From: Spirosoma rhododendri
GTDB lineage: Bacteria > Bacteroidota > Bacteroidia > Cytophagales > Spirosomataceae
NCBI RefSeq assembly: GCF_012849055.1
Contig: NZ_CP051677.1
Span: forward strand, 3,115,001 to 3,179,000
DNA: 64,000 nt
Direction: 5' to 3'
The position numbers were made by a program, and so were the translations under genes. Of the stretch, positions 1,367 to 39,378 are shown one piece after another. How positions within the stretch are numbered: the first letter of the stretch is position 1; each line of letters opens with the position of its first letter. The notes under the pieces were generated by a model. That model worked only from the letters and a program-made list of their open reading frames with translations. It searched no databases and was not told where the DNA came from.

Positions 1367-1447
1367 GTTTAACGTTTGTAGTTCAATGTTTAACGTTGGT
1401 TGCTGCTTGTCAGTAAAACATTAAACCTTACACGTTAAACCTTAAAC
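1367..1447. repeat. Hairpin with 7-nt periodic arms (H1)
   Basis: The left arm from 1368 reads as consecutive 7-mers TTTAACG, TTTGTAG, TTCAATG. The reverse complement of the right arm reads TTTAAGG, TTTAACG, TGTAAGG. Both arms keep the 7-nt period around an approximately 18-nt unique loop. The element starts right after the stop of the Sua5-like gene and ends 8 nt before the cca start codon. Confidence 0.8.
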
Positions 1448-1978
1448 TCATTTTCTAATAAAACTCACCCCGCCGTCGATGCTGAGCCGGATGATGCGGG
1501 GTTTGCGGGGCATACCGGGTAAAGCGCCGAACCGCTCACTGACGGCGGCTTCGGCTGGCGGGGGCAGCGTCAGCGATTCAAACGGAATCGTGAGCAGACC
1601 CTTGCCATAGCCGCCGATCAGCCGCTGGATTTCGGGATTGAGTGCCCGCCGGACCGCGATCTCCTGACTACGTTCGAGCAGTACGGGCGCGATGTTTTTC
1701 CCTTGTTCAAACACCACGATTAAGGGCGTGTCGGAAAAATCAACCACGTCGTAAGCCACATCGGGTAGTTTGGCGACGTACATCACCAGCTGATCGGGGT
1801 GTTGAATCAGCACCGTTGGGCGGACGCCGTCGGGCATGACTGAGAACAGCGTCAGCAGTTTCGCAACGGCTTCTTCACTGGTAGGGTCGGCCGCTACCGA
1901 CCAGCCGGTTTCGTCGGCCAGTGCAATCAGATTGCCTTGCCGGAGTTGATACGTAATGTCGCGGATTGTAGCTGCCAT
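1448..1978 (-). CDS. Sua5/YciO/YrdC-family protein
   Basis: A 176-aa protein with the YrdC/Sua5-like fold signature: an N-terminal GNLIALADETGWSVAADP stretch like the 'power/threshold' strand of the family, central PTVLIQHPDQL, and GGYGKGLLTIPFES near the C-terminus. Family members bind dsRNA/tRNA and ATP, and true Sua5/TsaC makes threonylcarbamoyl-AMP for the t6A37 tRNA modification. This protein is divergent and short, so it is likely a YciO-like paralogue rather than the main TsaC. It precedes cca in the same direction with only a hairpin between them, so both may be tRNA-related genes in one transcript. Confidence 0.75.
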   Translation of the reverse strand: MAATIRDITYQLRQGNLIALADETGWSVAADPTSEEAVAKLLTLFSVMPDGVRPTVLIQHPDQLVMYVAKLPDVAYDVVDFSDTPLIVVFEQGKNIAPVLLERSQEIAVRRALNPEIQRLIGGYGKGLLTIPFESLTLPPPAEAAVSERFGALPGMPRKPRIIRLSIDGGVSFIRK

Positions 1979-2136
1979 AGTGGTTGAAACCGCAAAGATA
2001 CGGCGCGGTTCGCCAATCGACCAGTTGCAGTATGTCTTTGTTAAATCCGGCTTTGATCGACGCGTGAAAAGACAACTGCCCGCCAGTGGTGTTTACTGGT
2101 TGATAAACCGACTCACCCAACCACCCTAGTTACGCT

Positions 2137-2811
2137 ATGACTACCCCCGTACGACCAAAGGCCATTGTATTCGACGTCAACGAAACCCTGCTCGACCTGA
2201 GCAGTTTACAGCGGGCGTTCACGCAGACGTTCAACGAGCAATTCGCCTTCAAATTCTGGTTTTCGACTCTGCTCCAGTACTCGCTCGTTGATACCCTGAC
2301 GACGAATTATCACGATTTTGGCCAGATTGGAAAAGCCGCCCTAACCATGACCAGCGCGTATTTCGACAAGCCGCTATCGCCCGACGAGCAGTAAGCATTA
2401 CTAGGGAAAATTCTCGACCTACAGCCGCACCCCGACGTGGAACCGGGCCTTGCCCGACTGAAAGAAGCCGGGTTTCGACTGGTCACACTGACCAATTCGC
2501 CGACTAAAACGCTGATGCAGCAAATGGCAAACACGGGGTTGGGGGCGTACTTTGAATCGCTCTGGAGCGTGGACGATGTGCAGTTGTTCAAGCCCCATCC
2601 GCAGACCTACCAACTGGCTCTGTCGCGGCTGCAACTGCCGCCGGAACAGACGATGATGGTCGCGTGCCACGCCTGGGATCTGGCTGGTGCCGCCCACGCC
2701 GGTATGCAAACGGGATTCATCGCCCGGCCCGGTCAGTCACCCTACGCATTGGCCCCCGCCCCGACCATAACGGGAAAGACGCTGACTGATCTGGTCGAGC
2801 AATTGGTGTGA
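2137..2811 (+). pseudogene. Haloacid dehalogenase type II (HAD superfamily), interrupted by in-frame TAA
   Basis: The frame 2137-2811 would encode 224 aa of an L-2-haloacid dehalogenase-like HAD hydrolase. Motif I is VFDVNETLLDL with nucleophile Asp13. Motif II is LVTLTNSPTKT, the Lys motif is FKPHPQTY, and motif III lies around MMVACHAWDL. A TAA at 2392-2394 (codon 86) splits it. The codons after it (ALLGKILDL...) continue the family in the same frame, so a single C-to-T change of CAA to TAA explains the break. A GTG at 2437 could restart translation but would lack the nucleophile. Real nonsense mutation and sequencing error are both possible. Confidence 0.85.
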
Positions 2812-2827
2812 TGTGTAGCCTACAACT

Positions 2828-2950
2828 GTAGCCTGGCGTTGATATGTAGCCTGGACGTCTACGTCCGGGTGGACGCGAAGCGACCAATAAGCTGCCGCCA
2901 CGAATAGTTGGCCTGACGGCCACCCGGACGTGGACGTCCAGGCTACAGTT
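2828..2950. repeat. Dispersed GC-rich inverted repeat, family F1 copy 1
   Basis: Left arm 2845-2872 begins TGTAGCCTGGACGTC, and the right arm 2920-2947 is its reverse complement with one mismatch. A second copy with similar loop sequence lies at 22553-22680. A partial extra TGTAGCCTGG half-site precedes the left arm in both copies. The shared loop shows this is a homologous element of about 120 bp, not two chance hairpins. Confidence 0.85.
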
Positions 2951-2988
2951 GCACAACCATCCCTTCTACCGAACACAAAAACAACACG

Positions 2989-3723
2989 ATGAGAGCGCTG
3001 CTTTTCTTACTGTCTTTTAGCCTGTCGCTTGGTACGGTGACGGCGCAGGTCAAACCCGCTGATCTTGCCGGGGCGTGGCAGTTTACCGAGCCGTCGGGTA
3101 CGCGGACCGTGCTGACGTTTGCCGACAGCTACCTTATTCAGACCGTCTACGAACCCGGCCGCTTTATCAGTACCAGTGGTGGAACGTGGCAACTGATGGG
3201 CGACAATCTGTTTGAAGTTGTTGAGTTTGATTCCAACGATAGCAGCCACGTCGGAGTAGCTGAGCGAATGCAGGTCAAGGTGGCCAATAAAAAGCTGACG
3301 CTGAGGACAAAAACTCGCACACTGACGTTTGACCGGGTCGCGCCAGACAGGGTCGATCAGTCTGGTTCGTCAGATCAACTGGCCGGTTTATGGCGTATTA
3401 CGAGCCGGGCCAATGATGCGGGTCAGCTGACGCCCATGCAAGGTGGCCCCCGCAAAACGATCAAACTCCTGACCGGAACTCGCTTCCAATGGGTAGCAAT
3501 CAACCCCCTGACGAAGCAATTTTTCGGCACTGGAGGTGGCACGTACGTGTTAAAAGACGGTAAGTACACCGAAACGATTGAGTTTTTCTCCCGCGACAAT
3601 AGCCGCGTCGGTAAGTCGCTGACGTTTGGTGCCGAGGTAAGCCCGAACGAGTGGCACCATACGGGGCAAAGCTCGACGGGTGGACCGGTCAACGAGATCT
3701 GGAGTCGGGAGGCCGGTAAATAA
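2989..3723 (+). CDS. Secreted protein with two tandem homologous domains
   Basis: A 244-aa protein with a clear signal peptide (MRALLFLLSFSLSLGTVTAQ). The mature part contains two similar units of about 100 residues. Unit 1 (residues ~26-110) has LAGAWQFTEPSGTRTVLTF and ends in FDSNDSSHVG. Unit 2 (~132-235) has LAGLWRITSRA and ends in FFSRDNSRVG. The pattern GxW...GGTW/Y...xxEFxSxDxSxVG suggests a small beta-barrel, lipocalin-like fold, but I cannot name a function. It is probably periplasmic or exported. The duplication is seen directly; the fold is inference. Confidence 0.8.
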   Translation: MRALLFLLSFSLSLGTVTAQVKPADLAGAWQFTEPSGTRTVLTFADSYLIQTVYEPGRFISTSGGTWQLMGDNLFEVVEFDSNDSSHVGVAERMQVKVANKKLTLRTKTRTLTFDRVAPDRVDQSGSSDQLAGLWRITSRANDAGQLTPMQGGPRKTIKLLTGTRFQWVAINPLTKQFFGTGGGTYVLKDGKYTETIEFFSRDNSRVGKSLTFGAEVSPNEWHHTGQSSTGGPVNEIWSREAGK

Positions 3724-3785
3724 ACGGCGTTCCAACCGATGCATGAACAATATGGTCTAGTCAGCAACCAACACTGCGCTACACC

Positions 3786-4124
3786 ATGAACCGACTAATC
3801 AATTGCTTGCTTTTCGCTGGCCTGATGCTGATGAGTTGCCAGCGCGATAACCTGCCGAGCTGCGTAGAGAACCAAATCAAGCAGATACAGGCGCAGGGGG
3901 TTTGGAGCCCGCCCGCCAAAATCTACCAGTACCGGTATCAGGGCCGGACGGTCTACTTTATTCCACAACGCTGCTGCGATATACCGAGTCAGCTGCTGGA
4001 TGAAAACTGCAATCAGATTTGTTCGCCCGATGGGGGCTTTACCGGGGCGGGCGATGGCCGATGCAGCGACTTCTTCAAAACCCGCACCGACGAAAAGCTG
4101 ATTTGGGAAGACACGAGAAGATAA
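3786..4124 (+). CDS. Small lipoprotein, DUF6970-like
   Basis: A 112-aa protein with a lipoprotein signal (LMLMSCQRDN, Cys at residue 18). The mature part is cysteine-rich and has QYRYQGRTVYFIPQRCCDIPSQ, followed by CNQICSPDGGFTGAGDGRCSDF. This pattern matches a small family of Bacteroidota lipoproteins I remember as DUF6970; the number should be verified. The conserved cysteines may form disulfides or bind metal in the periplasm. No function is known to me. It follows the two-domain secreted protein by 62 nt in the same direction. Confidence 0.75.
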   Translation: MNRLINCLLFAGLMLMSCQRDNLPSCVENQIKQIQAQGVWSPPAKIYQYRYQGRTVYFIPQRCCDIPSQLLDENCNQICSPDGGFTGAGDGRCSDFFKTRTDEKLIWEDTRR

Positions 4125-4319
4125 CGTGAACCAGCCCTGTGCGTTGGCGTGTCGTCTGGTAACCACACGCGCTATGTAGCCTGTTTATCTGGTTCGTATA
4201 CGACAGCGGGGGCGTTCACATTATATCGCTTTAATGTTGGTTTACGAGCAGAATACAGTGGGTAAATCGGATAATAAGCTGCTTTTAGTGTATGATTCCG
4301 AGGTGATAATCTGCTGCCT

Positions 4320-6725
4320 ATGCGCCTGATTGCGTTACTATCCATACTCATCGTTAGCGGTTACCAACTCGTTCTGGCGCAGACGCCCCGCCCGACGACG
4401 TCCGTTTTTTCCGTGACGGGCTATGTGCGCGACGCCCGGACCAAACAACCGATTCAAGGGGCTAACATCGTCGTGCTCGACGTGTCGAAGGGATACGTCA
4501 CGGCGAAAGATGGCTTCTTCGTGGTAAACCTGCCCGTTGGCCGATACGTCCTGAAATTTACGCATGTCGGCTACCGCCCTACGCTCGACACGGTGCAGGT
4601 GCAGGGCACTGTGTTTCGGGAGGTGTACATGCCCGACGATGCCAAAGACCTCGACGAAGTGGTCGTGACCAGCGAAACGCCCGACCGTAATGTGCGTAAG
4701 GTCGAGCTGGGCGTGTCGCAGCTGACGATTCGGAGTATCCGGCGCATTCCCCCGCTGCTGGGTGAGGTCGACGTAATTCGGAGTCTGCTACTGCTGCCGG
4801 GTGTGACAACGGTGGGTGAAGGGGCTCCCGGTTTCAACGTGCGCGGGGGCAGCGTCGATCAGAATCTGGTGTTGCTGGACGATGCGCCGGTGTTCAATAC
4901 CAGCCACCTGATGGGCTTTTTCTCGGCCTTCAACCCCGATGTGGTGCGCGACGTAACGCTCAACCGGGGCGGGGTGGCGGCTTCGTATGGCGGCCGGGCG
5001 TCGTCGGTGCTGGACGTGAAGGTGCGCGAGCCCGACGCGCAGAAATGGAGCATCAACGGCGGTATCGGTGTCGTGTCGAGCCGGTTGGGTGTCGAGGGGC
5101 CGATCATCAAAAACAAGCTGTCGCTGCTGCTCGGGGCGCGGGCGTCGTTCAACGATTTTCTGTTCAAGCTGGCTCCGCCCAACCTGCGAAACACCCGCGC
5201 CAATTTCTACGACCTGACGGGGAAGCTGAAGTACCAGCTCAACGAGCAGCATACCCTGACCCTGACGGGCTACCAGAGTCAGGATGTGTTCAAGCTGCCG
5301 TCTGATTCGCTGTCGGGGCAGGAGATCAACGCATCGTCGACCCAGTTCAACTACCAGACGCTCAACGGAACGCTGCACTGGAACTACTTTATCAGCAAAC
5401 GGGCCAACCTCAGTACGGCCCTGATTCTGAGCCGCTACAAAGCTGATCTGTCGGCACCCGATTCGGCCAACGCGTTTAATCTGCGGTCGGGTGTGCGGCA
5501 GCGGCAGCTGAAATCCGATTTTAGTTATTCGCTCAACAAAGCCCATCAGTTGCAGGTCGGGATAAGCGTAATCGACTACCGGGTGCAGCCCAATACGCGG
5601 ACCGTCGGCCCGTTTTCCAACGTGTTGCCGGTAACGCTGGCCGACGAACAGGCGTATGAACTAGCGGGCTATGTGCAGGACGAATGGACAATCAACCCGG
5701 CCCTATCGATACTGGCGGGCCTGCGCTACTCCGAACTGCTCAACCGGGGACCGGCTACCGTGCAGACCTACGCCGAAAATGGCCCCGTGCAGGATGAAAC
5801 CGTGACGGGCACCCGTACTTACACCGCCGGAACCATCTACCACACAACGGGGGGACTGGAACCCCGGCTGGCCCTGCGCTGGTCGGTCGGTGAGGGGAAA
5901 TCGGTGAAGCTGGGGTACAGTCGGCTGCGGCAGTACATCAATCAGATTACCAACACGACGGCCGCGCTGCCAACGTCGCGCTGGCACCTGAGCGACGTGT
6001 ATACCAAACCGCAGATTGCCGATCAGTATTCGCTGGGCTATTTCCGCAACAGCACCGACAATGCCTACGAACTATCGGGCGAGGTGTATTACAAGCACAT
6101 CGCCAACGCCATCGACTACCGCGACGGGGCTGAAATTCAGCTGGCCCCCGCCGTTGAAACGCAGATCGTGCAGGGCGATGGCCGGGCGTATGGGGTGGAG
6201 GGGCTGGCCCGCAAAAACAAAGGCCGCTGGACGGGTTTCGCCAGCTACACCTACGCCCGCACGTTCCTGACGATGAACAGCCCCTACGCCAGCGAACGCG
6301 TCAACAACGGCAACCCGTATCCGGCCAACTACGACAAGCCGCACACGCTCAACATACTGGCGACGTACCGCCCCACGGCCTGGTTTAGCCTGTCGCTGAA
6401 TTTCACATACAGCACCGGTCGCCCGACGACGCAGCCTTACGCCCGCGCCCTCATCAACGGCATCTACGTACCGATCTACGTGGACCGGAATCAGCAGCGC
6501 ATCCCCGACTACCATCGGCTCGATTTCTCGATGCTGTTCGAGCAGAACCCGCTCAAAAAGAAGCGAAACCAGAGCAGCTGGGTCTTTTCGATTTACAATG
6601 TCTACGCGCACAAGAATGCGTATTCGGTCTTTTACCGGCTCAGCAATGCCGCCAATGAGAACGCCTACAAGCTGTCCATTTTCGGCACTGTGTTTCCTTC
6701 GTTGACGTACAATTTTAAGTTTTGA
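4320..6725 (+). CDS. TonB-dependent outer-membrane receptor with N-terminal carboxypeptidase-regulatory-like domain
   Basis: An 801-aa protein with signal peptide (cut near LVLAQTPRP). A CarboxypepD_reg-like beta-sandwich follows (~residues 30-115: VTGYVRDARTKQPIQGANI). Next are the linker DLDEVVVTSE and a TonB plug (GVTTVGEGAPGFNVRGGSVDQ), then a 22-strand-type barrel to the C-terminal NFKF. It imports an unknown ligand across the outer membrane with energy from TonB. This subtype is usually encoded beside a DUF4249 lipoprotein, which is exactly the next gene here, rather than beside SusD. The 195 bp upstream holds no obvious gene. The ligand cannot be told from sequence. Confidence 0.93.
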   Translation: MRLIALLSILIVSGYQLVLAQTPRPTTSVFSVTGYVRDARTKQPIQGANIVVLDVSKGYVTAKDGFFVVNLPVGRYVLKFTHVGYRPTLDTVQVQGTVFREVYMPDDAKDLDEVVVTSETPDRNVRKVELGVSQLTIRSIRRIPPLLGEVDVIRSLLLLPGVTTVGEGAPGFNVRGGSVDQNLVLLDDAPVFNTSHLMGFFSAFNPDVVRDVTLNRGGVAASYGGRASSVLDVKVREPDAQKWSINGGIGVVSSRLGVEGPIIKNKLSLLLGARASFNDFLFKLAPPNLRNTRANFYDLTGKLKYQLNEQHTLTLTGYQSQDVFKLPSDSLSGQEINASSTQFNYQTLNGTLHWNYFISKRANLSTALILSRYKADLSAPDSANAFNLRSGVRQRQLKSDFSYSLNKAHQLQVGISVIDYRVQPNTRTVGPFSNVLPVTLADEQAYELAGYVQDEWTINPALSILAGLRYSELLNRGPATVQTYAENGPVQDETVTGTRTYTAGTIYHTTGGLEPRLALRWSVGEGKSVKLGYSRLRQYINQITNTTAALPTSRWHLSDVYTKPQIADQYSLGYFRNSTDNAYELSGEVYYKHIANAIDYRDGAEIQLAPAVETQIVQGDGRAYGVEGLARKNKGRWTGFASYTYARTFLTMNSPYASERVNNGNPYPANYDKPHTLNILATYRPTAWFSLSLNFTYSTGRPTTQPYARALINGIYVPIYVDRNQQRIPDYHRLDFSMLFEQNPLKKKRNQSSWVFSIYNVYAHKNAYSVFYRLSNAANENAYKLSIFGTVFPSLTYNFKF

Positions 6726-6733
6726 CGAAGTCA

Positions 6734-6811
6734 GGTTTAAAGTCTGATGTTCAACGTTTGACGTTGGGCGCAGTCAGCAACAGTAAACGATAAACTTCAG
6801 ACTTTAAACCC
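6734..6811. repeat. Hairpin with 7-nt periodic arms (H2)
   Basis: The left arm reads as 7-mers TTTAAAG, TCTGATG, TTCAACG, TTTGACG. The reverse complement of the right arm reads TTTAAAG, TCTGAAG, TTTATCG, TTTACTG. The outer 14 bp are perfectly paired and the inner part is imperfect. The element fills the gap between the TonB receptor stop and the DUF4249 start, ending 3 nt before ATG. Confidence 0.85.
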
Positions 6812-6814
6812 GTT

Positions 6815-7879: not shown

Positions 7880-7921
7880 ACGGGTTGACAACCCGCCCCA
7901 AATCCAATAAATTTGTGAACA

Positions 7922-8007
7922 GGTCTAAGCCGGGCCGCCGGGCGGTTCAACGTTTAAGGTTGCCGACAACCGTTAACGTTAAACCGCCCGGCGGCCCGGC
8001 TTAGACC
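7922..8007. repeat. GC-rich perfect-arm hairpin with short 7-nt periodic core (H3)
   Basis: Arms 7922-7947 and 7982-8007 are perfect 26-bp reverse complements, starting GGTCTAAGCCGGGCC. The inner part carries TTCAACG, TTTAAGG and complementary words of the same 7-nt type as the other hairpins. It sits between the DUF4249 gene and the GT9 gene, 20 nt before the latter's ATG. A terminator role is possible, but no T-run follows. Confidence 0.8.
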
Positions 8008-8027
8008 ATAAACGTTGAACTCAACTC

Positions 8028-9023: not shown

Positions 9024-9121
9024 GGGGTGGTGTCAGGTAGCGGTTCCTGATCACAGCTGGGCCGTTTCTCCTTTGTCAGTGGGCTGTTATCAATGGATTG
9101 GATCAGGCTAACCTGTCGAAG

Positions 9122-9586: not shown

Positions 9587-9589
9587 CGC

Positions 9590-15327: not shown

Positions 15328-15420
15328 GGGTTTAAAGTTTCGGGTTCAACGTTTAAAGTTCAACGTTGTTCTGCCTGGACTATGAACCTTTAACAGTAAA
15401 CACCAAACTTTGAACTAAAC
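15328..15420. repeat. Hairpin with 7-nt periodic arms (H4)
   Basis: The left arm reads TTTAAAG, TTTCGGG, TTCAACG, TTTAAAG, TTCAACG. The reverse complement of the right arm reads TTCAAAG, TTTGGTG, TTTACTG and so on, again with period 7. It ends 2 nt before the moaC ATG and lies in the moeA/moaC divergent region, where it would be in the moaC leader. Confidence 0.8.
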
Positions 15421-15422
15421 GA

Positions 15423-15899
15423 ATGAACTCATTCTCCCACATAAGCCCCGAAGGCGACCCGGCAATGGTCGACGTGGGCGCTAAGGCCATTAGCCGCCGG
15501 ACCGCCCGCGCCCGCAGCGTGGTCGTGCTCAACGACGAAATTATGGCGCATTTCGCCGGTCAGGATATTGCGACGAAGAAAGGGCCGGTGTTTCAGACCG
15601 CGATCATTGCCGGAACAATGGCCGCCAAACGCACCGACTCGCTGATTCCGCTGTGCCATTCGCTGGGGCTCGACAACTGCCGCATCACGATCCATACGGA
15701 GGGCCTGACCGCCGTTGTCGAGTGCACGGTGTCGACGGAGGGCAAGACGGGGGTGGAGATGGAAGCCCTCGTTGGCGCATCTGTCGCGGCCCTGACCATC
15801 TACGATATGTGCAAAGCGTTTTCGCACGACATTGTGATTCAGGAAACGAAACTGATGGAAAAAACCGGTGGCAAACGCGATTTCAACCGAGACAAATAA
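15423..15899 (+). CDS. moaC: Cyclic pyranopterin monophosphate synthase MoaC
   Basis: A 158-aa protein, the normal MoaC length. It converts the 3',8-cyclo-GTP made by MoaA to cPMP, the first stable molybdenum cofactor precursor. The family motifs are MVDVGAKAISRRTARA, TDSLIPLCHSLGLDN, TGVEMEALVGASVAALT and YDMCKAF. The start is ATG 2 nt after a periodic hairpin. The end overlaps mobA by 32 nt, so the two genes are translationally linked. No moaA is present in the window. Confidence 0.95.
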   Translation: MNSFSHISPEGDPAMVDVGAKAISRRTARARSVVVLNDEIMAHFAGQDIATKKGPVFQTAIIAGTMAAKRTDSLIPLCHSLGLDNCRITIHTEGLTAVVECTVSTEGKTGVEMEALVGASVAALTIYDMCKAFSHDIVIQETKLMEKTGGKRDFNRDK

Positions 15900-20380: not shown

Positions 20381-21460
20381 ATGCATAAAAATTTTAAAGG
20401 CGTTGAAAAGACCGTCTACGGACGGGGAAGTTTCAATCAGCTTGACGATATTCTGGCTCCGGTGCGGGCCGAAAACAACCAGTACTTCGTGTTTCTGGTC
20501 GACAATTATTTCAAAGGTAAGCCGCTCGAAAATCGCGTGCCCGCCCACGACCATGACCTGGTGTATTACATCAGCGTCGAAGAGCACGAGCCAACGACCG
20601 AACAGATCGACAGTCTCCGCGACGAGATTCTGGCGCAGAAAGGACTGCCATCGGGCGTCGTCGGGATCGGTGGCGGCAGCATCATGGACATTGCTAAAGC
20701 GCTTTCGCTGATGCTGACCAATGAAGGCTCATCGACGCTGTATCAGGGTTTGAATCTGATCAAGAAGCCGGGCATCTACCACGCGGGTGTTCCGACAATT
20801 TCGGGGACCGGCGCGGAAGTGTCGATGACCGCTGTATTAACCGGGCCGGAGAAAAAGCTTGGTCTCAAGTGCGAGTGGACGGTGTTTAATCAGATCGTGC
20901 TTGATCCTGAACTGATCGCGTCGGTGCCGCGCAACTGGTGGTTCTACACCGGCATGGACACATACATTCACTGCATCGAATCGGAGAATGGGCGGTTGAA
21001 TAATGCCTATTCACACGCCTATGCCGAGCAGTCGATGAAGCTGTGCCGGGACATTTATCTGGGCGAAAACTCGGGTCAGACGCCGGAGAATGACGATAAA
21101 CTGATGGTGGCGTCGCTGATGGGTGGCCTGAGCCTGACGTACTCGGAAGTGGGCGTTTGCCACGCGCTGAGCTACGGACTGTCGAAGATTCTGGGTATGC
21201 GCCACTGCTACGCCAACTGCATCGCGATGAACCATCTGGAAGACTTTTATCCGGAAGGGGTGAAGGAGTTCAAAGAGATGGTGGCGTACCATCAGATCGA
21301 CCTGCCGCAGGGGCTATCGAACGACTGGAGCGACGATATTCTGACGCAAATGGCGCACGTTTCGTATGGCCTGCCGCACATGTGGCTGCACGCCATCGGC
21401 GACAACTGGCAGGAAGTCATCACCATCGACTCGCTGAAAGACCTGTTCCGGCGGATGTAA
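20381..21460 (+). CDS. kdnB: 3-deoxy-alpha-D-manno-octulosonate 8-oxidase-like, iron-containing alcohol dehydrogenase family
   Basis: A 359-aa protein of the iron-type alcohol dehydrogenase fold. GIGGGSIMDIAKA is the NAD(P) glycine motif; PTISGTGAEVSMTAVLT and the metal-site histidines (MDTYIHCIESE, GVCHALSYGL, GMRHCYAN) follow. The N-terminal NFKGVEKTVYGRGSF and partner kdnA indicate KdnB, which oxidises C8 of Kdo to the aldehyde aminated by KdnA. The product, 8-amino-Kdo, is part of Shewanella LPS. Role here is inferred from family and context, strengthened by kdsA, kdsC and kdsB directly downstream. Confidence 0.85.
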   Translation: MHKNFKGVEKTVYGRGSFNQLDDILAPVRAENNQYFVFLVDNYFKGKPLENRVPAHDHDLVYYISVEEHEPTTEQIDSLRDEILAQKGLPSGVVGIGGGSIMDIAKALSLMLTNEGSSTLYQGLNLIKKPGIYHAGVPTISGTGAEVSMTAVLTGPEKKLGLKCEWTVFNQIVLDPELIASVPRNWWFYTGMDTYIHCIESENGRLNNAYSHAYAEQSMKLCRDIYLGENSGQTPENDDKLMVASLMGGLSLTYSEVGVCHALSYGLSKILGMRHCYANCIAMNHLEDFYPEGVKEFKEMVAYHQIDLPQGLSNDWSDDILTQMAHVSYGLPHMWLHAIGDNWQEVITIDSLKDLFRRM

Positions 21461-21500
21461 GGTTGAGGTTGAAAGTAGTCTGAAAAAAGCTTTCAAATGC

Positions 21501-21591
21501 TTTTTGTCATCCCGACGTAGGAGGGATCTTCGGTAGCAGGCGATTCTTCTTGCTACTATCGAAGATCCCTCCTACGTCGGGATGACAAAAA
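21501..21591. repeat. Dispersed inverted repeat, family F2 copy 1
   Basis: Arms 21501-21532 and 21560-21591 are perfect 32-bp reverse complements (TTTTTGTCATCCCGACG...), with a short TAGCA extension inside. A second copy lies at 56510-56597. It sits between kdnB and kdsA. On either strand it has the stem plus T-run of an intrinsic terminator, so it may also terminate transcription. Confidence 0.85.
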
Positions 21592-21682
21592 GAAATACGT
21601 TGACATAGAACAACAGACAACTCCCCTAACTGGTTGTTGAAAACTTGCCGACCCAGTTACTGGCGGCTTAATTAATTTTGTT

Positions 21683-22552: not shown

Positions 22553-22680
22553 TGTAGTGTAGCTTGGTGTTTTGTGTAGCTTGGACGTCTACGTCCGGGC
22601 GGACGCGAAGCGGCCTGTTAGCTGCCGCCTGCAAAAGTTGGCCTGACGGCCACCCGGACGTGGACGTCCAGGCTACACGT
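22553..22680. repeat. Dispersed GC-rich inverted repeat, family F1 copy 2
   Basis: A homologue of the element at 2828-2950. Arms are 22574-22602 and 22650-22676, and the loop shares GGACGCGAAGCG, GCTGCCGCC and GTTGGCCTGACGGCC with copy 1. It fills the kdsA-kdsC gap and ends about 20 nt before the kdsC ATG. Confidence 0.85.
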
Positions 22681-23406: not shown

Positions 23407-23503
23407 GGTATACGGCTTACAGTAGTCGGTTTACGGTGATGAACTGCCGTAGCCATTGGCTGTAAACCGAAAACCGTATACCGAAAACTATAAACCGAAA
23501 ACT
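23407..23503. repeat. Hairpin with 7-nt periodic arms, different word (H5)
   Basis: The left arm reads GTATACG, GCTTACA, GTAGTCG, GTTTACG. The reverse complement of the right arm reads GTTTTCG, GTTTATA, GTTTTCG, GTATACG, GTTTTCG, GTTTACA. Period 7 is kept, but the word (GTTTACG) differs from the TTTAACG type. It fills the kdsC-kdsB gap and ends 4 nt before the kdsB ATG. Confidence 0.82.
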
Positions 23504-23507: not shown

Positions 23508-24263
23508 ATGATCGTCGGCATTATTCCCGCCCGTTACGGCTCGACCCGCTTTCCCGGCAAACCCCTGACCGACATCGGCGGTAAGCCCATGATTCAGCGG
23601 GTGCTGGAGCAGGCGCAGAAAGCACACCGGCTCGATGCTGTCTTCGTGGCAACCGACGACGAGCGGATTGTCGCGGCTGTGGAAGCGGCTGGTGGGCGCG
23701 CCGTGATGACCCGTACGGAATTGCCAAGCGGTACAGACCGGTGTCAGGAAGCCTATCGCAAGCTGGTTGACGATGGTACCTTGCCCGACGATCCGGCCAA
23801 TTACATTGTCAACGTACAGGGCGACGAGCCGTTTCTGAACCCCGATCAGATCGATGGGTTGGCGGCCGTGCTGGACGGATCGGTGGAACTGGCAACGCAG
23901 ATGGCCCCGGTTGAATCGGCTGAAGTGCTGCTGAGTGCGAGCGAGGTGAAAATCATCATGAACGCCCGGCAGGAAGCTCTTTACTTCAGTCGGCAGCCGA
24001 TTCCGTACCTGCGCGGTGTTGATCCGATGAACTGGCATCAGCACCACACCTACCACCGGCACGTGGGCTTGTACGCCTACCGCGCCGACATCCTTGACAA
24101 GATCACCCAGCTACCCATTTCGTCGCTCGAACAGGCCGAATCGCTGGAGCAACTCCGGTGGTTGGAAGCGGGTTTCTGCATCAAACTAGTCGAAACGGCC
24201 CACACCGCGCAGGCCGTCGATGAGCCCGACGACGTCGAAAAAGCCCTCCGCAGCGCACTGTGA
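23508..24263 (+). CDS. kdsB: 3-deoxy-manno-octulosonate cytidylyltransferase (CMP-Kdo synthetase)
   Basis: A 251-aa protein, full length for KdsB. It activates Kdo, or 8-amino-Kdo, with CTP. Motifs: IIPARYGSTRFPGKPL, VFVATDDERIV, ELPSGTDRCQEA, NYIVNVQGDEPFLNPDQID, YHRHVGLYAYRAD, and SLEQAESLEQLRWLE. In Shewanella a dedicated KdsB uses 8-amino-Kdo; which sugar this enzyme prefers cannot be read from sequence. Periodic hairpins flank it on both sides. Confidence 0.96.
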   Translation: MIVGIIPARYGSTRFPGKPLTDIGGKPMIQRVLEQAQKAHRLDAVFVATDDERIVAAVEAAGGRAVMTRTELPSGTDRCQEAYRKLVDDGTLPDDPANYIVNVQGDEPFLNPDQIDGLAAVLDGSVELATQMAPVESAEVLLSASEVKIIMNARQEALYFSRQPIPYLRGVDPMNWHQHHTYHRHVGLYAYRADILDKITQLPISSLEQAESLEQLRWLEAGFCIKLVETAHTAQAVDEPDDVEKALRSAL

Positions 24264-24265: not shown

Positions 24266-24367
24266 GGGTTTCGGGTTCAATGTTTCACGTTTAAGGTTTA
24301 CCACGTACGAAACGCGAATACAGAAGCCGCAACGTTAAACTTTGAACCGTAAACGTTAAACCAAACG
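24266..24367. repeat. Hairpin with 7-nt periodic arms (H6)
   Basis: The left arm reads TTTCGGG, TTCAATG, TTTCACG, TTTAAGG. The reverse complement of the right arm reads TTTAACG, TTTACGG, TTCAAAG, TTTAACG. The element begins just after the kdsB TGA and ends about 2 nt before the ATG of the thiamine pyrophosphokinase gene. Confidence 0.82.
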
Positions 24368-29774: not shown

Positions 29775-29814
29775 AAGGTACTTTGCATTGCATAGTACCT
29801 TGTGCCTATATTTG
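29775..29814 (+). promoter_or_regulatory. PadR-operon promoter with overlapping palindromic operator
   Basis: TATATTTG at 29807-29814 matches the Bacteroidota -7 box, and TTTG at 29782-29785 lies 21 nt upstream as the -33 box. The -33 box falls inside an inverted repeat, AAGGTACT at 29775-29782 and AGTACCTT at 29794-29801. A repressor bound there would block the sigma factor. PadR proteins usually repress their own operon, so autorepression is the natural reading. Confidence 0.65.
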
Positions 29815-29821
29815 TCAATAT

Positions 29822-29910
29822 AAAGAGCGAAAGAATGAGAGAGTGAAAGAGCGAAAGCTCCTCGACCTGCTGCTTTCGCTCTTTCGCTCACTCACACTTT
29901 CGCTCTTTAA
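29822..29910. repeat. Hairpin with 8-nt periodic arms in the padR leader (H7)
   Basis: The left arm reads as 8-mers GAGCGAAA, GAATGAGA, GAGTGAAA, GAGCGAAA. The right arm reads CTTTCGCT, CTTTCGCT, CACTCACA, CTTTCGCT. About 36 bp pair with about four mismatches. It lies between the -7 box and the padR ATG (4 nt away), so it is transcribed as the 5' UTR. Confidence 0.85.
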
Positions 29911-29914
29911 TCTT

Positions 29915-30322: not shown

Positions 30323-30343
30323 CCTTCCTTTCTGTAAAACGCC

Positions 30344-32866: not shown

Positions 32867-32950
32867 GTTATAGAATAGTTGAATGACAGAATGATTGAGT
32901 GATTGAATAGCAGGATGCACCAGCTCATTCAATCACTCAATCATTCATTT
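32856..32950. repeat. Hairpin with 8-nt periodic arms between convergent genes (H8)
   Basis: From 32856 the sequence reads as 8-mers AGAATGAT, TGAGTTAT, AGAATAGT, TGAATGAC, AGAATGAT, TGAGTGAT, TGAATAGC. The right arm (32923-32950) pairs over 19-22 bp. The array includes the pspC stop codon (32864-32866), and its right arm includes the stop of the convergent lipoprotein gene (32945-32947). It may serve as a bidirectional terminator. Confidence 0.82.
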
Positions 32951-33877: not shown

Positions 33878-33899
33878 GACCAGCGAATGTATTGAATAA

Positions 33900-33972
33900 C
33901 ACGACAACCGCGCAACTAATTGACTAAGTGGCCTGTACGCCAGTTTAGTCAGTCGGTTGCGCGGTTGTCGTG
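33900..33972. repeat. Inverted repeat upstream of the lipoprotein gene (F6)
   Basis: Arms 33900-33927 and 33945-33972 (CACGACAACCGCGCAAC...) pair over 28 bp with a few mismatches and a 17-nt loop. It fills the gap between the AI-2E permease stop and the lipoprotein start. Confidence 0.75.
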
Positions 33973-33984
33973 TCTTCGCCGATT

Positions 33985-35052: not shown

Positions 35053-35135
35053 GAGCGAAAACGCGGTGTGTCTATGGTGATGTACAGGCACCTAACCCGC
35101 TTTTACCCCTCAATTGTTTTAAGGACGCCTTAAGC

Positions 35136-36536
35136 TCAGCATTCGGTGGCGCTCAGGGCCAGCCCGGCCTCCGATGTTTCCTTGTACTTGGTCGACATGT
35201 CGCGGCCGGTTGCTTTCATGACTTTGACAACCGCGTCGAGCGAAATTTTCTGCTTGCTGGCCGACCCTGCCGTGGCCAGTAAAAAAGCGTTATAGGCTTT
35301 CACCGCGCCCATCGCGTTGCGCTCGATGCACGGGATCTGCACATAGCCGCCAATCGGGTCGCAGGTCATGCCGAGGTGGTGCTCGATGGCAATTTCGGCA
35401 GCTGCTTCGATCGTGAGAATAGAGCCGGTGGGCTGGGCACAGCGCGTCAGAAAAGCCGCTCCCATTGCCGATGCCGTACCGATTTCGCCCATGCACCCCA
35501 TCTCTGCCCCGGAGATGCTGGCGTTGTGCTTGACCAGAAAGCCGATGACGGCCGCTGCCAGCATCCCGCTCCGTAGCGTCGCTTTATCGTAATGAAACTG
35601 GTGCTTAGCCAGGTACGTCAGCCCCGGAATAACGCCCGACGCCCCCGACGTGGGTGCCGTAACGACGATGCCACCCGCTGCGTTTTCCTCCGATGCGGCC
35701 AGACAATACGCATTCAGGAAAATGAGGAAACTGTCGGAACGGAGTGCCGGGCCGAGCTGTCCCATGCCCTTCGCCTGCCGGTACAGCTGAGGTGCTTTGC
35801 GGCTTAGCTTGATCGAGCCGGGCAGGGTACCGTTGTGCCGTAGTCCCCGCCGGACGGCCTTATGCATGAAGTCGAGCAACTGGTCGATGCGGTGGTTGAT
35901 TTCGCTGCGTGTCCGGCCGGTCAGGGCCATTTCGTTGGCCATCAGCAGCGCATCGAGCGGCAGGTTGTGGTGGGCGAGCTGGGCTTTCAACTCGGCCATT
36001 GTTCCGTACGGATATGGTACAGATACCGTTGCCGGGTCAACGACGGGCTCGCCTTTGCGGATAATGAAGCCCCCACCGATCGAATAGTATTCTTCCGAAT
36101 AAAGCGTTTCGCCCTGCTCCGTCAATCGCAGCACCATCGTGTTGTGGTAGGGCGAATCGTAGCGGACGCGCTCGAAATGAATGTGTTCCGGCCCCAGCGC
36201 CACTGTCTTACCACCGATCTGAATCGCGTAGGTCTGCGAGGGGTCGCGGAGCAGGTTGAGCAGTGCCGCCGGGTCTGTCGATTCGGGTTGCCAGCCCAGT
36301 AGCCCGGCCACTACGGCCCGGTCGGTGCCGTGCCCTTTGCCCGTCGCGCTCAGCGACCCGTACAGATGCACGTGTATCGCGTCGGCGTGGGCCTGCTGGC
36401 CGGCGGGCAGCGTAGCCAGCCGTTCGCGGAAATCGAACGCGGCTTTCATGGGACCAATCGTGTGCGAACTCGACGGGCCCGGCCCAACTTTGAACAAATC
36501 AAAAATGGACGTGGTAATCGGACTGACAGGAAGCAT
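35136..36536 (-). CDS. sdaA: L-serine ammonia-lyase, iron-sulfur-dependent, single-chain
   Basis: A 466-aa protein, full length for the fused (beta-alpha) form. It deaminates L-serine to pyruvate in the cytoplasm. The N-terminal SIFDLFKVGPGPSSSHTIGPM is diagnostic. The alpha part has TAPTSGASGVIPG and three candidate [4Fe-4S] cysteines in GAEMGCMGEIG, MTCDPIGGYV and IPCIERNAMGAVKAY. There is no obvious partner gene; the neighbours are unrelated. Confidence 0.95.
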   Translation of the reverse strand: MLPVSPITTSIFDLFKVGPGPSSSHTIGPMKAAFDFRERLATLPAGQQAHADAIHVHLYGSLSATGKGHGTDRAVVAGLLGWQPESTDPAALLNLLRDPSQTYAIQIGGKTVALGPEHIHFERVRYDSPYHNTMVLRLTEQGETLYSEEYYSIGGGFIIRKGEPVVDPATVSVPYPYGTMAELKAQLAHHNLPLDALLMANEMALTGRTRSEINHRIDQLLDFMHKAVRRGLRHNGTLPGSIKLSRKAPQLYRQAKGMGQLGPALRSDSFLIFLNAYCLAASEENAAGGIVVTAPTSGASGVIPGLTYLAKHQFHYDKATLRSGMLAAAVIGFLVKHNASISGAEMGCMGEIGTASAMGAAFLTRCAQPTGSILTIEAAAEIAIEHHLGMTCDPIGGYVQIPCIERNAMGAVKAYNAFLLATAGSASKQKISLDAVVKVMKATGRDMSTKYKETSEAGLALSATEC

Positions 36537-36592
36537 GTCGATGAAGGATCAGAACGATAAAGGTAATGCTTGCCTGATCGAATTGTCTCTGT

Positions 36593-36618
36593 CTTAAACA
36601 GCATCCCGGCTGTTTGAG
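36593..36618. terminator. Weak hairpin, possible terminator or leader element
   Basis: CTTAAACAGC and GCTGTTTGAG pair over 9 of 10 bp around a 6-nt loop, between the sdaA start and the MpaB-like stop (both on the minus strand). There is no strong T-run, so it may not terminate. Confidence 0.3.
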
Positions 36619-36625
36619 ATAATAA

Positions 36626-37390
36626 TTACTTCACCGGCTGGTCGAGGCCCTGAATCTGAGCCAGATAGTCGGTTGGCAGTAGAATGCGCTGCACTACCGA
36701 TCGCAGTCGTAGCGCATTCAGCACCTTATACAAACCAATGCTGTGGGGCAAAATCGGGTCGGGGGTCAGGTCGAGTGGTGCGCTCACCTGCATCGGCACC
36801 AGAATCGACTGTACGCGCCGGAGCAGGTTGTAACGCCAGGTGCCCAGCTGCTCGTGATACCGCCGAAACAGCCGGTCGGTAAACTCACTGCGCGCGAGGT
36901 CGTTGTCGAGGTGATGGTGCCGGTCGATCTGCCAGTCGGTGTAGTTGGTGGGCAGATCGGGAACGCCCATCCCGGCCCCTACGGCCCGAAACGTCTGAAA
37001 CAGTTCTTCGCGCTCTGCGTCGGTCAGGGGGCGGTGCAGCAACTGGTAAGCGCGCTCGGAATAATCGATCAGCATGTACAGCACGTCGCGATAGGCCCAG
37101 TCGGGAATGCTGTACCCCCGGTTCTGCTCGACGCCCTTATGGATGACACGCATCCGGTCGATGGCCTGCCGGGCACGCTCGTCGGGAGCAAAGACAATCT
37201 CCTGCGCGTAGCGAACCGTCGAGAACAACCGGGCAATGGGATCAGCCGGAAGCCGACCCGTAAAAAACAGCCAGTCGACAGCTTTGTTGAGCGCAAATTC
37301 AGCCGCCGATCCAGCAAAAATCAGCAGGATCACGTCGGCGTCGCCCCATATTCGACGTACCACCGACCCCGGCCGGACGAAGTAATTCAT
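36626..37390 (-). CDS. Oxygenase MpaB / latex-clearing-protein-like family (DUF2236)
   Basis: A 254-aa protein matching the DUF2236/MpaB family. It starts with FVRPGSVVRRIWGDADVILL, has LLIFAGSAAEFALNKAVDW, and later DPIARLFSTVRYAQEIVFA and VPDLPTNYTDWQIDRH. Members include the heme b rubber oxygenase Lcp and fungal MpaB, which cleaves a prenyl chain. The heme ligands are not certain from this sequence. ATG 37390, 4 nt from hairpin H9, is chosen over a TTG three codons upstream. Confidence 0.85.
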   Translation of the reverse strand: MNYFVRPGSVVRRIWGDADVILLIFAGSAAEFALNKAVDWLFFTGRLPADPIARLFSTVRYAQEIVFAPDERARQAIDRMRVIHKGVEQNRGYSIPDWAYRDVLYMLIDYSERAYQLLHRPLTDAEREELFQTFRAVGAGMGVPDLPTNYTDWQIDRHHHLDNDLARSEFTDRLFRRYHEQLGTWRYNLLRRVQSILVPMQVSAPLDLTPDPILPHSIGLYKVLNALRLRSVVQRILLPTDYLAQIQGLDQPVK

Positions 37391-37393
37391 TGA

Positions 37394-37466
37394 GTTCAAG
37401 GTTTGATGTTTACCGTTTAAGGTTAGGCGAAAGCAACGTCAAACGTTAAACATCAAACCTTAAACG
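37394..37466. repeat. Hairpin with 7-nt periodic arms (H9)
   Basis: On the minus strand the upstream arm reads TTTAAGG, TTTGATG, TTTAACG, TTTGACG, and the downstream arm pairs with about 21 of 24 positions. It spans nearly the whole gap from the OmpA-family stop to 3 nt before the oxygenase ATG. Confidence 0.85.
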
Positions 37467-37471
37467 AACCG

Positions 37472-38230
37472 TCACATTGCCAATACAACGAATTCGACGC
37501 GCCGGTTCTTTTGTTTGTTTGCCTCTGAATCATTGGGGGCGATGGGCTGCGTGTCGCCAAAGCCGTGAACCCGAAGGCGACTTTCGGCAATGCCGTGCCG
37601 CGCCAGATACGCCCGAATCACGCTGGCCCGGTTTTCCGACAGCGCCTGATTCAGCCGCCGGTCGCCCACATTATCGGTATGACCGACGACCAGAATTTTC
37701 AACTGAGGAACGGTTTGCAGGGTCTTCACCAGCTTGTCGAGCTGCGGGTATGATTCGGGGCGGAGCGTGTAGGTACTTTGCTCAAAATAAACGTCGTCGA
37801 GCTGAAACGACTGGTTGACGGCCAGGTTACGGAACACTGTGTCTGGTTTGGCCGTTGGGCTGGTTTTGGCCCGTTCGGGGCTGACTGTCGGCTGCTGCCT
37901 GTCGAGTTTGATGATGTATTCGTAATCGTGGCAGGTATCGCACGACACCACCATCAGCTCTTCGGCTTCGTGGTAGCCCGGAGCCATTGCCAGCACGTCG
38001 AGCGTATCGGTTTGTGTCAACACAAAATTGAATGACGATGTGCTGGGGCTGGTGAATACCTTGCGGGCCTGAATGGCCGTAACCGAAAATTGCGCCGAGA
38101 TTACCGCTTCCGTCTTACTGTCGACCGCTTTAAGGGAAAAAAGCGTGCGTGAAGGCTTTTTCAGCGCCACCGACTGACCGTGGCCGGGCAGCACAAACAG
38201 CAGGAGCACAAAGGCAAATAGAACACGCAT
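37472..38230 (-). CDS. OmpA-family outer-membrane / peptidoglycan-binding protein
   Basis: A 252-aa protein with signal peptide (MRVLFAFVLLLFVLPGHGQ). The middle domain has beta-strands around SLKAVDSKTEAVISAQFSVT. The C-terminal ~110 residues form an OmpA/MotB domain: LKILVVGHTDNVGDRRLNQALSE, then RASVIRAYLARHGI, then LRVHGFGDTQPIAPNDSEA and KNRRVEF. This domain binds diaminopimelate of peptidoglycan and would anchor the protein in the periplasm. ATG 38230 is the only start that gives a signal peptide. The family is well supported; the specific role is not. Confidence 0.9.
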   Translation of the reverse strand: MRVLFAFVLLLFVLPGHGQSVALKKPSRTLFSLKAVDSKTEAVISAQFSVTAIQARKVFTSPSTSSFNFVLTQTDTLDVLAMAPGYHEAEELMVVSCDTCHDYEYIIKLDRQQPTVSPERAKTSPTAKPDTVFRNLAVNQSFQLDDVYFEQSTYTLRPESYPQLDKLVKTLQTVPQLKILVVGHTDNVGDRRLNQALSENRASVIRAYLARHGIAESRLRVHGFGDTQPIAPNDSEANKQKNRRVEFVVLAM

Positions 38231-38353
38231 AAGTAACAGATGTAATCGGGGTAATGTATCAAAAGGAATGCCGGAATTGACGGCCGTTCGGGGATGAATA
38301 TACGTGCATTGGCCGTAGAATGCGAGTCTGCGCCGAGCCCGTCGTTGGGGCAA

Positions 38354-38372
38354 TCCGGTTAATGTAACCGGA
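38354..38372. promoter_or_regulatory. Palindrome upstream of the fucose cluster, possible operator
   Basis: TCCGGTTA and TAACCGGA are 8-bp perfect arms around ATG as spacer. The site is 40 bp upstream of the -7 element at 38413 and is the kind of position a dimeric regulator would use. No regulator gene is nearby. Confidence 0.4.
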
Positions 38373-38412
38373 CTATTCTGTTCGGGGCTATGGTTAAAGA
38401 CAGGCTATGCCG

Positions 38413-38420
38413 TACTTTTG
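38413..38420 (+). promoter_or_regulatory. Bacteroidota-type -7 element TACTTTTG upstream of the fucose cluster
   Basis: An exact match to TAnnTTTG, 22 nt before the ATG at 38442. The preceding bases are identical to those at the kdnA promoter (GCCGTACTTTTG). It also argues against a start at the upstream TTG at 38418. Confidence 0.5.
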
Positions 38421-38441
38421 AACCAAAGCCTGAACGATTAC

Positions 38442-39296
38442 ATGAAACTTTTTCGCTTCGGCCCCAGCGGCCACGAACGCCCCGGCGTCGTTCTCTCATC
38501 CGGTCAGTCGATTGACGTAACGCACTTCGGCGAAGACTACGACGAATCGTTTTTTACCACCAACGGCCTGGCCCGGCTGGCGCACTGGCTCGACTCTCAC
38601 GCGCAGAACTGCCCGGAGGTGTCGCCCGACGAACGGTTTGGGTCGTGCGTAAAACGCCCCTCGAAGATTGTCTGCGTCGGACTGAACTACGCCAAACATG
38701 CCGCCGAAACCAACGCCCCCATCCCGGCCGAACCCATTCTGTTTTTCAAGGCAACAACGGCCCTGTGCGGCCCCAACGACGACGTGGTGATTCCCAAGCG
38801 GTCGGAAAAAACTGACTGGGAAGTTGAACTCGCTATCGTGATTGGCAAGCGCGCCAGCTACGTGGAACTCGACGAAGCGATGGACTACATTGCCGGGTAT
38901 GCGCTGCACAATGACTACAGCGAACGCGCCTGGCAACTGGAGCGTGGCGGGCAGTGGGTGAAGGGCAAAAGCGCCGACACGTTTGCGCCCCTGGGTCCGT
39001 ATCTGGTCACGACCGACGAGATCACCGAACCCAACAAGCTTCCCCTCTGGCTGACGCTCAACGGCGAAAAACTTCAGGACTCGAACACCGACGACATGAT
39101 TTTCGACGTACCGACGCTGGTCAGCTACATCAGTCAGTTCATGACCCTGCTGCCCGGCGACGTTATCTCGACGGGAACCCCCGCCGGTGTCGGTCTGGGT
39201 CTGAAACCCCAGCGCTACCTCAAGCCCGGCGACGTGGTCGAACTCGGCATCGACGGCCTCGGCCAGCAAAAGCAAACAGCAGTAGCGTTTACTTAA
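38442..39296 (+). CDS. Fumarylacetoacetate hydrolase family protein, probable 2,4-diketo-3-deoxy-L-fuconate hydrolase
   Basis: A 284-aa protein of the FAH family. Motifs: IVCVGLNYAKHAAETN, LFFKATTALCGPNDDV, TDWEVELAIVIGKRA, GYALHNDYSERAWQ, and KSADTFAPLGPYLVT. The acidic residues around WEVELA bind Mg. In L-fucose oxidation, FAH members hydrolyse 2,4-diketo-3-deoxy-L-fuconate to pyruvate and L-lactate, and the following genes support that. Without the dehydrogenase and dehydratase genes nearby, the assignment is by context. The start is ATG 38442, just after the promoter. Confidence 0.85.
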   Translation: MKLFRFGPSGHERPGVVLSSGQSIDVTHFGEDYDESFFTTNGLARLAHWLDSHAQNCPEVSPDERFGSCVKRPSKIVCVGLNYAKHAAETNAPIPAEPILFFKATTALCGPNDDVVIPKRSEKTDWEVELAIVIGKRASYVELDEAMDYIAGYALHNDYSERAWQLERGGQWVKGKSADTFAPLGPYLVTTDEITEPNKLPLWLTLNGEKLQDSNTDDMIFDVPTLVSYISQFMTLLPGDVISTGTPAGVGLGLKPQRYLKPGDVVELGIDGLGQQKQTAVAFT

Positions 39297-39298
39297 AA

Positions 39299-39378
39299 AT
39301 GAGTGAATTAGTGAATGAGTGATTGAGTGAATATTCTGCGTCAGCCTTATTCGCTCAATCACTCATTCGCTCATTCAC
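39299..39378. repeat. Hairpin with 8-nt periodic arms (H10)
   Basis: The left arm reads TGAGTGAA, TTAGTGAA, TGAGTGAT, TGAGTGAA. The right arm is TTCGCTCA, ATCACTCA, TTCGCTCA, TTCAC. About 28 of 31 positions pair around a 13-nt loop. It starts just after the FAH stop and ends 8 nt before the amidohydrolase ATG. The same word type occurs in H8. Confidence 0.87.

What the first reader, a model, noticed from the sequence alone, without database searches (positions are those of the whole stretch)
1367..39378. Ten intergenic hairpins whose arms are tandem repeats with exact 7- or 8-nt period
At 1367, 6734, 7922, 15328, 23407, 24266, 29822, 32856, 37394 and 39299 the gap between genes holds a hairpin. 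Both arms are degenerate tandem arrays of a short word, and the two arms keep the same period. Seven have a 7-nt word (TTTAACG, TTCAACG or GTTTACG types) and three an 8-nt word (GAGTGAAT, GAGCGAAA types). Words differ between loci, so these are not copies of one sequence; the shared property is the build. Loops are mostly unique. Slippage plus a need to keep pairing would produce this, and it implies selection or a dedicated mechanism. I know of no description.
Basis: partly seen in the sequence, partly recalled or inferred. Interest (0 to 1): 0.85.

Follow-up and report, generated by a model that had tools for sequence, protein, structure and literature searches.

The report
Intergenic hairpins with drifting tandem-word arms
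Many gaps between genes in this bacterium hold a short DNA hairpin whose two arms are mirrored runs of a 7- or 8-letter word, and a close relative mostly keeps hairpins in the same gaps with the same word length but, for the 7-letter kind, largely different words, which suggests a process that rewrites both arms together.

Summary
Nine of the ten hairpins have significant 7/8-nt periodicity (p<=0.0015); the tenth (7922) only in its inner part. They are genome-wide: 79 of 195 intergenic inverted repeats in 844 kb have period 7 (40) or 8 (39), so roughly 500 per genome.

They are diverged copies of a few dispersed families, and 37 of 79 loops share a TGGCTGACGC-like core (again in G013).

What stands out is how they evolve. 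In relative G013 (82% identical DNA around one locus), 17 of 21 own hairpin junctions also hold a periodic hairpin, always of the same period (Fisher p=4e-12), yet the 7-nt words differ: GTTTAAG-type in 11 of 14 here, GTTTACG-type in 12 of 13 there. 7-nt arms are nearest to a same-genome paralogue in 19 of 22, to the orthologue in 1.

Best explanation: REP-like dispersed palindromes whose arms are rewritten together by template switching, slippage and copying between loci. The mechanism is inferred, the function open. Inverted heptamer arrays are in print for Xanthomonas; my searches found no report of concerted word change.

The parts
1367..1440 (.). Period-7 hairpin (GTTTAAC/GTTCAAT words), fills the gap 1359-1447 between two - strand genes
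   Evidence: p=0.0005; orthologous gap in G013 has a period-7 hairpin with GTTTTCAGTATTCGG words
6734..6810 (.). Period-7 hairpin, 8 nt after the stop of the + gene 4320-6725; loop GGCGCAGTCAG
   Evidence: p=0.0015; G013 orthologue has period 7 in other words
7922..8007 (.). Composite hairpin: inner 19-bp period-7 core inside a GC-rich palindrome (GGTCTAAGCCGGGCCGCCGGGC)
   Evidence: p=0.07 for the whole arm; inner part lag-7 match 0.62
15330..15415 (.). Period-7 hairpin between divergent genes, 7 nt before the start at 15423
   Evidence: p=0.0005; G013 period 7
23408..23502 (.). Period-7 hairpin of the GTTTACG word type, 5 nt after the stop before it and 5 nt before the gene 23508-24263 (kdsB-like; name from memory)
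   Evidence: p=0.001; G013 and G025 also period 7; other words or no hairpin in further genus members
24268..24354 (.). Period-7 hairpin with mixed word types downstream of the kdsB-like gene
   Evidence: p=0.0005; the gap is 4-5 nt without a hairpin in G024, G007, G010
29821..29909 (.). Period-8 hairpin (GAGCGAAA words), 5 nt before the start of the + gene 29915
   Evidence: p=0.0005; G013 period 8 with GAGTGAAT words
32889..32946 (.). Period-8 hairpin (GAATGATTGAGTGATT words); the 5' array begins further left at about 32856 (by eye)
   Evidence: p=0.001
37394..37465 (.). Period-7 hairpin, 31-nt arms (four units plus GTT), loop AGGCGAAAGC
   Evidence: p=0.0005; G013 period 7 in GTTTACG words
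39303..39378 (.). Period-8 hairpin (GAGTGAAT words) with loop core GCGTCAGCC
   Evidence: p=0.0005; G013 has the same period, similar words and a like loop TTGCGACAGCCT

Best explanation
The hairpins are a high-copy set of dispersed intergenic palindromes (roughly 500 per genome, scaled from a sample) with a niche like that of REP/BIME elements. Each is two inverted arrays of a degenerate 7- or 8-nt word around a short loop that in about half carries a TGGCTGACGC-like core, in either orientation. Shown: the build, the dispersal as families, the conservation of place and period between two species, the word difference at shared places for the 7-nt class, and the G-over-C polarity of the 5' arm. 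Inferred: during replication the strand folds back, so one arm is copied from the other (template switching), arrays slip by whole words, and words are copied between loci; this keeps pairing and period while the word drifts in concert across a genome (molecular drive). On this reading pairing is kept mainly at the DNA level. Whether the hairpins also do something useful, such as holding supercoils or separating neighbouring genes, is not shown.
For: Families of copies with match ends near the hairpin ends and positional unit consensus. Place kept: both species 17, own only 4, G013 only 6, neither 90 of 117 orthologous junctions, Fisher p=4e-12; period concordant in 17 of 17. Word difference: own 11 of 14 A-type, G013 12 of 13 A'-type (hairpins with fewer than two recognised words left out); nearest neighbour of 22 seven-nt hairpins: same species 19, orthologue 1, other 2. 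Sense-strand G.U against A.C mismatches even: 40:30 and 33:32. Orientation like all junctions (57/13/6 against 404/95/89, p=0.17), loop motif orientation random to genes, 19:18. G003/G008 kdsB-upstream stem: six differences over the shared 34 bp, all matched in the other arm, by eye. G004/G005 convergent junction: arms wholly different, each still paired (22/24 and 29/29, by eye). A loop turned round between own and G013 in a neighbouring palindrome. Arms match in register (0.86, 0.90) more than one unit off (0.66, 0.73-0.74), though hairpins were picked for in-register pairing. Template switching is in print as a maker and keeper of hairpins (PMC8794818, abstract and passages).
Against: In alignable orthologous stems, one-sided pair-breaking changes outnumber matched double changes, 34 to 6 (six of eight hairpins gave data), although tandem arrays align poorly. 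A second G003/G008 hairpin has five one-sided differences and none matched (by eye). Own arms are about as close to the best other locus (0.84, 0.90) as to their own partner (0.86, 0.89); the partner wins outright at 16 of 39 and 12 of 36. The 8-nt class did not shift as a whole: orthologue arm similarity 0.61 exceeds paralogue 0.41-0.44, while its nearest neighbours were same species 6, other-species non-orthologous 5, orthologue 1 of 12 (one doubtful locus dropped). No event was watched. Retention at 17 of 21 is also what selection for a function would give. Template switching as I worked it out does not by itself explain the 5'-arm G>C rule. The loop motif is weak in relatives other than G013 (6 of 54).
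Confidence: 0.46

Rival explanations
1. Functional RNA hairpins: transcription terminators, or mRNA 3'-end or intercistronic stabilisers, kept by selection on the transcript.
For: Hairpins start a median of 3 nt after stop codons, and places are conserved between species. Divergent junctions hold fewest (6 of 89).
Against: No excess at convergent junctions (13 of 95, against 36 of 95 for nonperiodic hairpins); a terminator-like stem lies beside the periodic hairpin at 3256379 in both species; no G.U excess on the sense strand, while nonperiodic hairpins show 58:32, p=0.008 (the two groups were not tested against each other); no Rfam match in the window.
Confidence: 0.17
2. Mobile elements (REPIN- or MITE-like) moved by a transposase, with older copies replaced by newer ones at favoured sites.
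For: Dispersed copies with sharp ends; short gaps without hairpin in relatives (G024, G007, G010 downstream of kdsB); presence/absence differences (10 of 117 junctions). Own and G013 each have one Y1-transposase-type gene over the Pfam cut-off (E=4e-8 and 2e-8, open frames 214 and 256 aa); a single such gene is what a REP system would have (recalled).
Against: None found in G025 (82% complete) although it has such hairpins; the surroundings of the own gene could not be read, so a link is untested. A fixed period per place is not expected of fresh insertions.
Confidence: 0.22
3. Independent slippage at every place plus selection for pairing.
For: Period 7/8 in both arms; slippage of heptamers is discussed in print (PMC4679880 passages).
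Against: Shared unit order and whole-element copies; shared loop core.
Confidence: 0.08
4. Paired C-rich 3' arms act as Rho-binding sites read from either side, masked by the G-rich 5' arm; this would account for the polarity.
For: 3' arm C 0.26-0.31, G 0.07-0.10. Rho's taste for C-rich, G-poor RNA is recalled; only a search listing was seen.
Against: Pairing would hide the site; no orientation bias; the Rho papers listed were not read.
Confidence: 0.04

Closest known systems
G-rich heptamer repeats of Xanthomonas (GGGAATC) and Nostoc (PMC4692102, passages read)
   Same: Degenerate 7-nt arrays between genes; 70 and 75 convergent inverted pairs in two Xanthomonas genomes (few in Nostoc); G-rich repeats tend to lie downstream on the coding strand or upstream on the other; 83% at the same gene context in the relative.
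   Different: There one word type per genome and a quadruplex reading; here several words, mostly no GGG runs (by eye), 7- and 8-nt periods, a loop core, and a different dominant 7-nt word in a close relative.
REP / BIME palindromes, GTAG- and CGTC-tagged (PMC3733652, passages read)
   Same: Hundreds of dispersed palindromes between genes.
   Different: Stems of 5-13 bp in print, here median 31; tandem words are not among the features listed in the passages that I saw; a RAYT link is open here.
TAACTGA heptamer repeats of Beggiatoaceae, Cyanobacteria and five Bacteroidetes (PMC4679880, passages read)
   Same: 7-nt arrays next to start codons, in some Bacteroidetes too.
   Different: Direct arrays of one constant word; in the main genome 169 direct sets and one indirect repeat.
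STRR heptamers of cyanobacteria (recalled; only search listings seen)
   Same: Short tandem 7-nt degenerate repeats between genes.
   Different: Not known to me as mirrored arms that change word in concert; not checked.

Membership tests
REP (GTAG/CGTC-tagged) | high-copy intergenic palindrome | tested here: met
REP (GTAG/CGTC-tagged) | short stem of 5-13 bp | tested here: not met
   median arm 31 nt; feature from PMC3733652
REP (GTAG/CGTC-tagged) | unpaired GTAG or CGTC tag at one end of the palindrome | tested here: inconclusive
   a CGTC lies in the loop core GCGTCAGCC, not at the end; ends were not scanned for tags
REP (GTAG/CGTC-tagged) | RAYT (Y1 transposase) partner for GTAG REPs | tested here: inconclusive
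   one PF01797 match over the cut-off in own and one in G013, none in G025; not examined for flanking hairpins
Xanthomonas/Nostoc G-rich heptamer repeats | heptamer arrays in inverted, convergent pairs between genes | tested here: met
   PMC4692102
Xanthomonas/Nostoc G-rich heptamer repeats | runs of three or more G able to form quadruplexes | tested here: not met
   word types GTTTAAG, GTTTACG, GAGTGAAT, AGTTGTAA lack GGG (arms printed, judged by eye; single arms have a GGG)
intrinsic terminator | enriched between convergent genes | tested here: not met
   13 of 95 convergent against 57 of 404 co-directional junctions
MITE | terminal inverted repeats with target-site duplication | not tested
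known structured RNA (Rfam) | covariance model match | tested here: not met
   0 matches at gathering score in the 64-kb window

The most novel reading that the evidence does not exclude
Bacteria of this family carry hundreds of paired-array palindromes whose places and word length are inherited while the word is rewritten, both arms together, across the genome, so that related species differ in dialect: a bacterial case of molecular drive on non-coding palindromes, driven by hairpin-templated copying or by a still unknown factor that reads the word.
Probability: 0.35. Interest if true: 0.85.

Novelty: new variant of a known kind. Interest (0 to 1): 0.62.

Why it matters
It separates three things usually confounded in intergenic repeats: place, period and pairing stay while the sequence turns over. 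That makes it possible to test whether compensated stems need selection or can be kept by replication alone, a caution for claims of RNA structure from covariation. It also links REP elements, heptamer repeats and the Xanthomonas inverted arrays by one build and one polarity rule (G-rich arm first), for which I found no explanation in the papers that I looked into.

Tried and rejected
Terminators: rejected as the main role by junction orientation and by a terminator-like stem beside one hairpin. RNA-level pairing: no sense-strand G.U excess. Known RNA family: none in the window. Rho sites: idea only. attC-like sites: the GTTTAAC...GTTAAAC ends resemble the integron core from memory, but the 8-nt families do not; not pursued. 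The first fold scan had too loose a threshold and was dropped. The genome-contig scan for named relatives kept 80 distant loci (best protein identity 58%), of little use for orthology; they showed 6 periodic hairpins (any lag 4-15) among 25 inverted repeats in 508 kb. A pattern for another 7-nt word matched 3 of 80 genomes of the class. The reversed-pattern control also matched in several genomes, so its counts (72 of 200 genomes, 16 of 36 genera) show heptamer arrays, not hairpins. One search stopped on an N and was rerun. Searches had faulty orientation or threshold and were replaced.
Full report
WHAT IS THERE. The ten reported places were read and scanned for gapless inverted repeats. Nine have significant lag-7 or lag-8 matching when stem positions are permuted with their pairing kept (p 0.0005-0.0015); the tenth, 7922, has a periodic 19-bp core inside a GC-rich palindrome (p=0.07). 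The window lies at 3115001-3179000 of contig 1 of a 6.05-Mb genome with 35 held relatives in its genus. No tool named the organism. The 80 relatives kept for one protein (called kdsB-like here from memory) carry Bacteroidota names or are unclassified; I infer Cytophagales.

GENOME-WIDE. In 844 kb of the genome (window plus 39 stretches) with 628 predicted genes (my own simple gene finder), 195 inverted repeats with arms of 18 or more lie between genes and 18 in genes. Of the 195, 40 have period 7, 39 period 8, and 5 another period. In 444 kb, none of 1410 intergenic windows outside hairpins reached the same match at lag 7 or 8. About five of the 79 are other repeats caught by the threshold. 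Scaled up this is roughly 500 per genome. Of 110 intergenic 7- or 8-nt arrays, 96 have an inverted partner within 140 nt (null 17 of 550); in G013 39 of 44 (null 10 of 220).

ANATOMY. Arms have a median of 31 nt, loops of 20. The 5' arm has more G than C in 75 of 79 (3 the other way, 1 tie) and in 30 of 30 periodic hairpins of 20 genus stretches, and in 11 of 11 of 13 further family, order and class stretches; some stretches were chosen because a word pattern matched there. Nonperiodic hairpins show 36 against 52 of 99. Loops carry a motif TGGCTGACGC: likelihood gain 142.7 against 29.5 and 32.4 in shuffled loops, at least 8 bits in 37 of 79 loops against 238 of 3891 random windows (the loops being those used for training). 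It was found again in G013 (gain 44.4 against 26.6; 11 of 28 loops; some are orthologous places), but only weakly in the other relatives (6 of 54 loops against 121 of 3000 random and 4 of 71 nonperiodic loops). Hairpins begin a median of 3 nt after a stop and lie 17 nt from a start.

COPIES. Seven-nt arms have a positional unit preference (50 arms). So they are dispersed families.

EVOLUTION. G013 has 82% identical DNA near kdsB. Of 117 orthologous junctions, 17 have a periodic hairpin in both, 4 only in own, 6 only in G013, 90 in neither; p=4e-12, and the period agrees in all 17 (11 of period 7, 6 of period 8). Yet seven-nt arms are as unlike between orthologues as between unrelated places of the two genomes (0.44 and 0.44), and more alike within own (0.60) and within G013 (0.63) (11 loci). 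Their nearest neighbours are same-species in 19 of 22, orthologous in 1. Own has 11 of 14 A-type (GTTYRAN) hairpins, G013 12 of 13 A'-type. Some own hairpins mix both types (7 of 38 in the 844-kb sample). For the 8-nt class orthologues are more alike on average (0.61) than paralogues (0.41-0.44, 7 loci, one doubtful), though the nearest neighbour is the orthologue in only 1 of 12; so the shift is not universal. Upstream of kdsB, among 28 genus members located by script, some have hairpins of other words (CACAGAG in G003, G006, G008), one a plain palindrome (G032), some a C-rich array without a detected partner (G007, G010, G016, G001, G015, G021), many none.

HOW ARMS STAY PAIRED. One CACAGAG stem differs at six places between G003 and G008, all matched in the other arm (by eye). 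At a convergent junction of G004 and G005 (flanks about 92% identical) both arms differ throughout and each hairpin is paired. Against this, another G003/G008 hairpin has five one-sided differences (by eye), and in alignable own/G013 stems one-sided breaks outnumber matched changes 34 to 6, though tandem arrays align poorly. Mismatches on the coding strand show no G.U bias (73 against 62 in all), so I place the maintenance at the DNA level. Template switching is proposed to create and mend hairpins (PMC8794818, abstract and passages). A loop inverted between own and G013 in a neighbouring nonperiodic palindrome (3137535) is a footprint that this paper describes.

ROLE. Periodic hairpins are spread over junction types like all junctions (p=0.17), unlike nonperiodic hairpins (p=8e-10, convergent excess). 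No Rfam family in the window. A single Y1-transposase-type gene in own and in G013 passes the Pfam cut-off, none was found in G025; its link to the hairpins is untested. I cannot tell a harmless self-maintaining element from one with a structural role.

KNOWN WORK. Xanthomonas has inverted pairs of GGGAATC arrays with the same polarity and 83% positional conservation (PMC4692102, passages). Heptamer arrays occur in Beggiatoaceae, Cyanobacteria and some Bacteroidetes (PMC4679880, passages). Searches for a description of tandem-word hairpins or of a concerted word change brought nothing closer in the papers listed; term look-ups in the main text of PMC2267715 found no tandem, heptamer or direct repeat, and in PMC12306157 no tandem, heptamer or Spirosoma. 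Most subscription papers are not in the library.

Noticed in passing
window 22574-22678 (own 3137535) and G013 orthologue: A different palindrome (TGTAGCYTGGACGTCTACGTCCGGG arms) keeps its arms while its 41-nt loop is reverse-complemented between the two species; another copy of the family lies at window 2845-2947.
   Followed up: partly
window 21500-21592, 56524-56578; L012 11265, L024 12230, L026 10533: A second dispersed palindrome family, TTTTTGTCATCCCGACGACAGGAGGGATCTTCGG, absent at the gap of G013 and G025 orthologous to 21460-21682.
   Followed up: partly
window 40249-40379 and 54486-54629; own 3066329: CCCCTCTCCCAAAACGGGAGAGGGG and TACCCCCCAGCCCCCTAAAGGGGG palindromes; at 3066329 such a palindrome sits inside a decayed 7-nt hairpin, an element within an element.
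   Followed up: no
kdsB-upstream gap of G007, G010, G016, G001, G015, G021: C-rich arrays (CTCTGTG or CTCTTTCA words) before the start codon without a detected partner, perhaps half-lost hairpins.
   Followed up: no
periodic hairpins of own, genus and family stretches: The 5' arm is G-rich and C-poor in 116 of 120; the same polarity is reported for Xanthomonas. One Prevotella hairpin (L069 3792) runs the other way by eye. Unexplained.
   Followed up: partly
L069 3792, L054 3730: Prevotella and Bacteroidaceae contigs with hairpins of 9-nt (ACAACAAAG) and 7-nt (AATTGAA) words, so the build may reach other orders.
   Followed up: no
G000:C1:971581-971823 (-): The only Y1-transposase-type (PF01797) match of the own genome, over the cut-off; a candidate RAYT-like gene whose surroundings were not read.
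   Followed up: no
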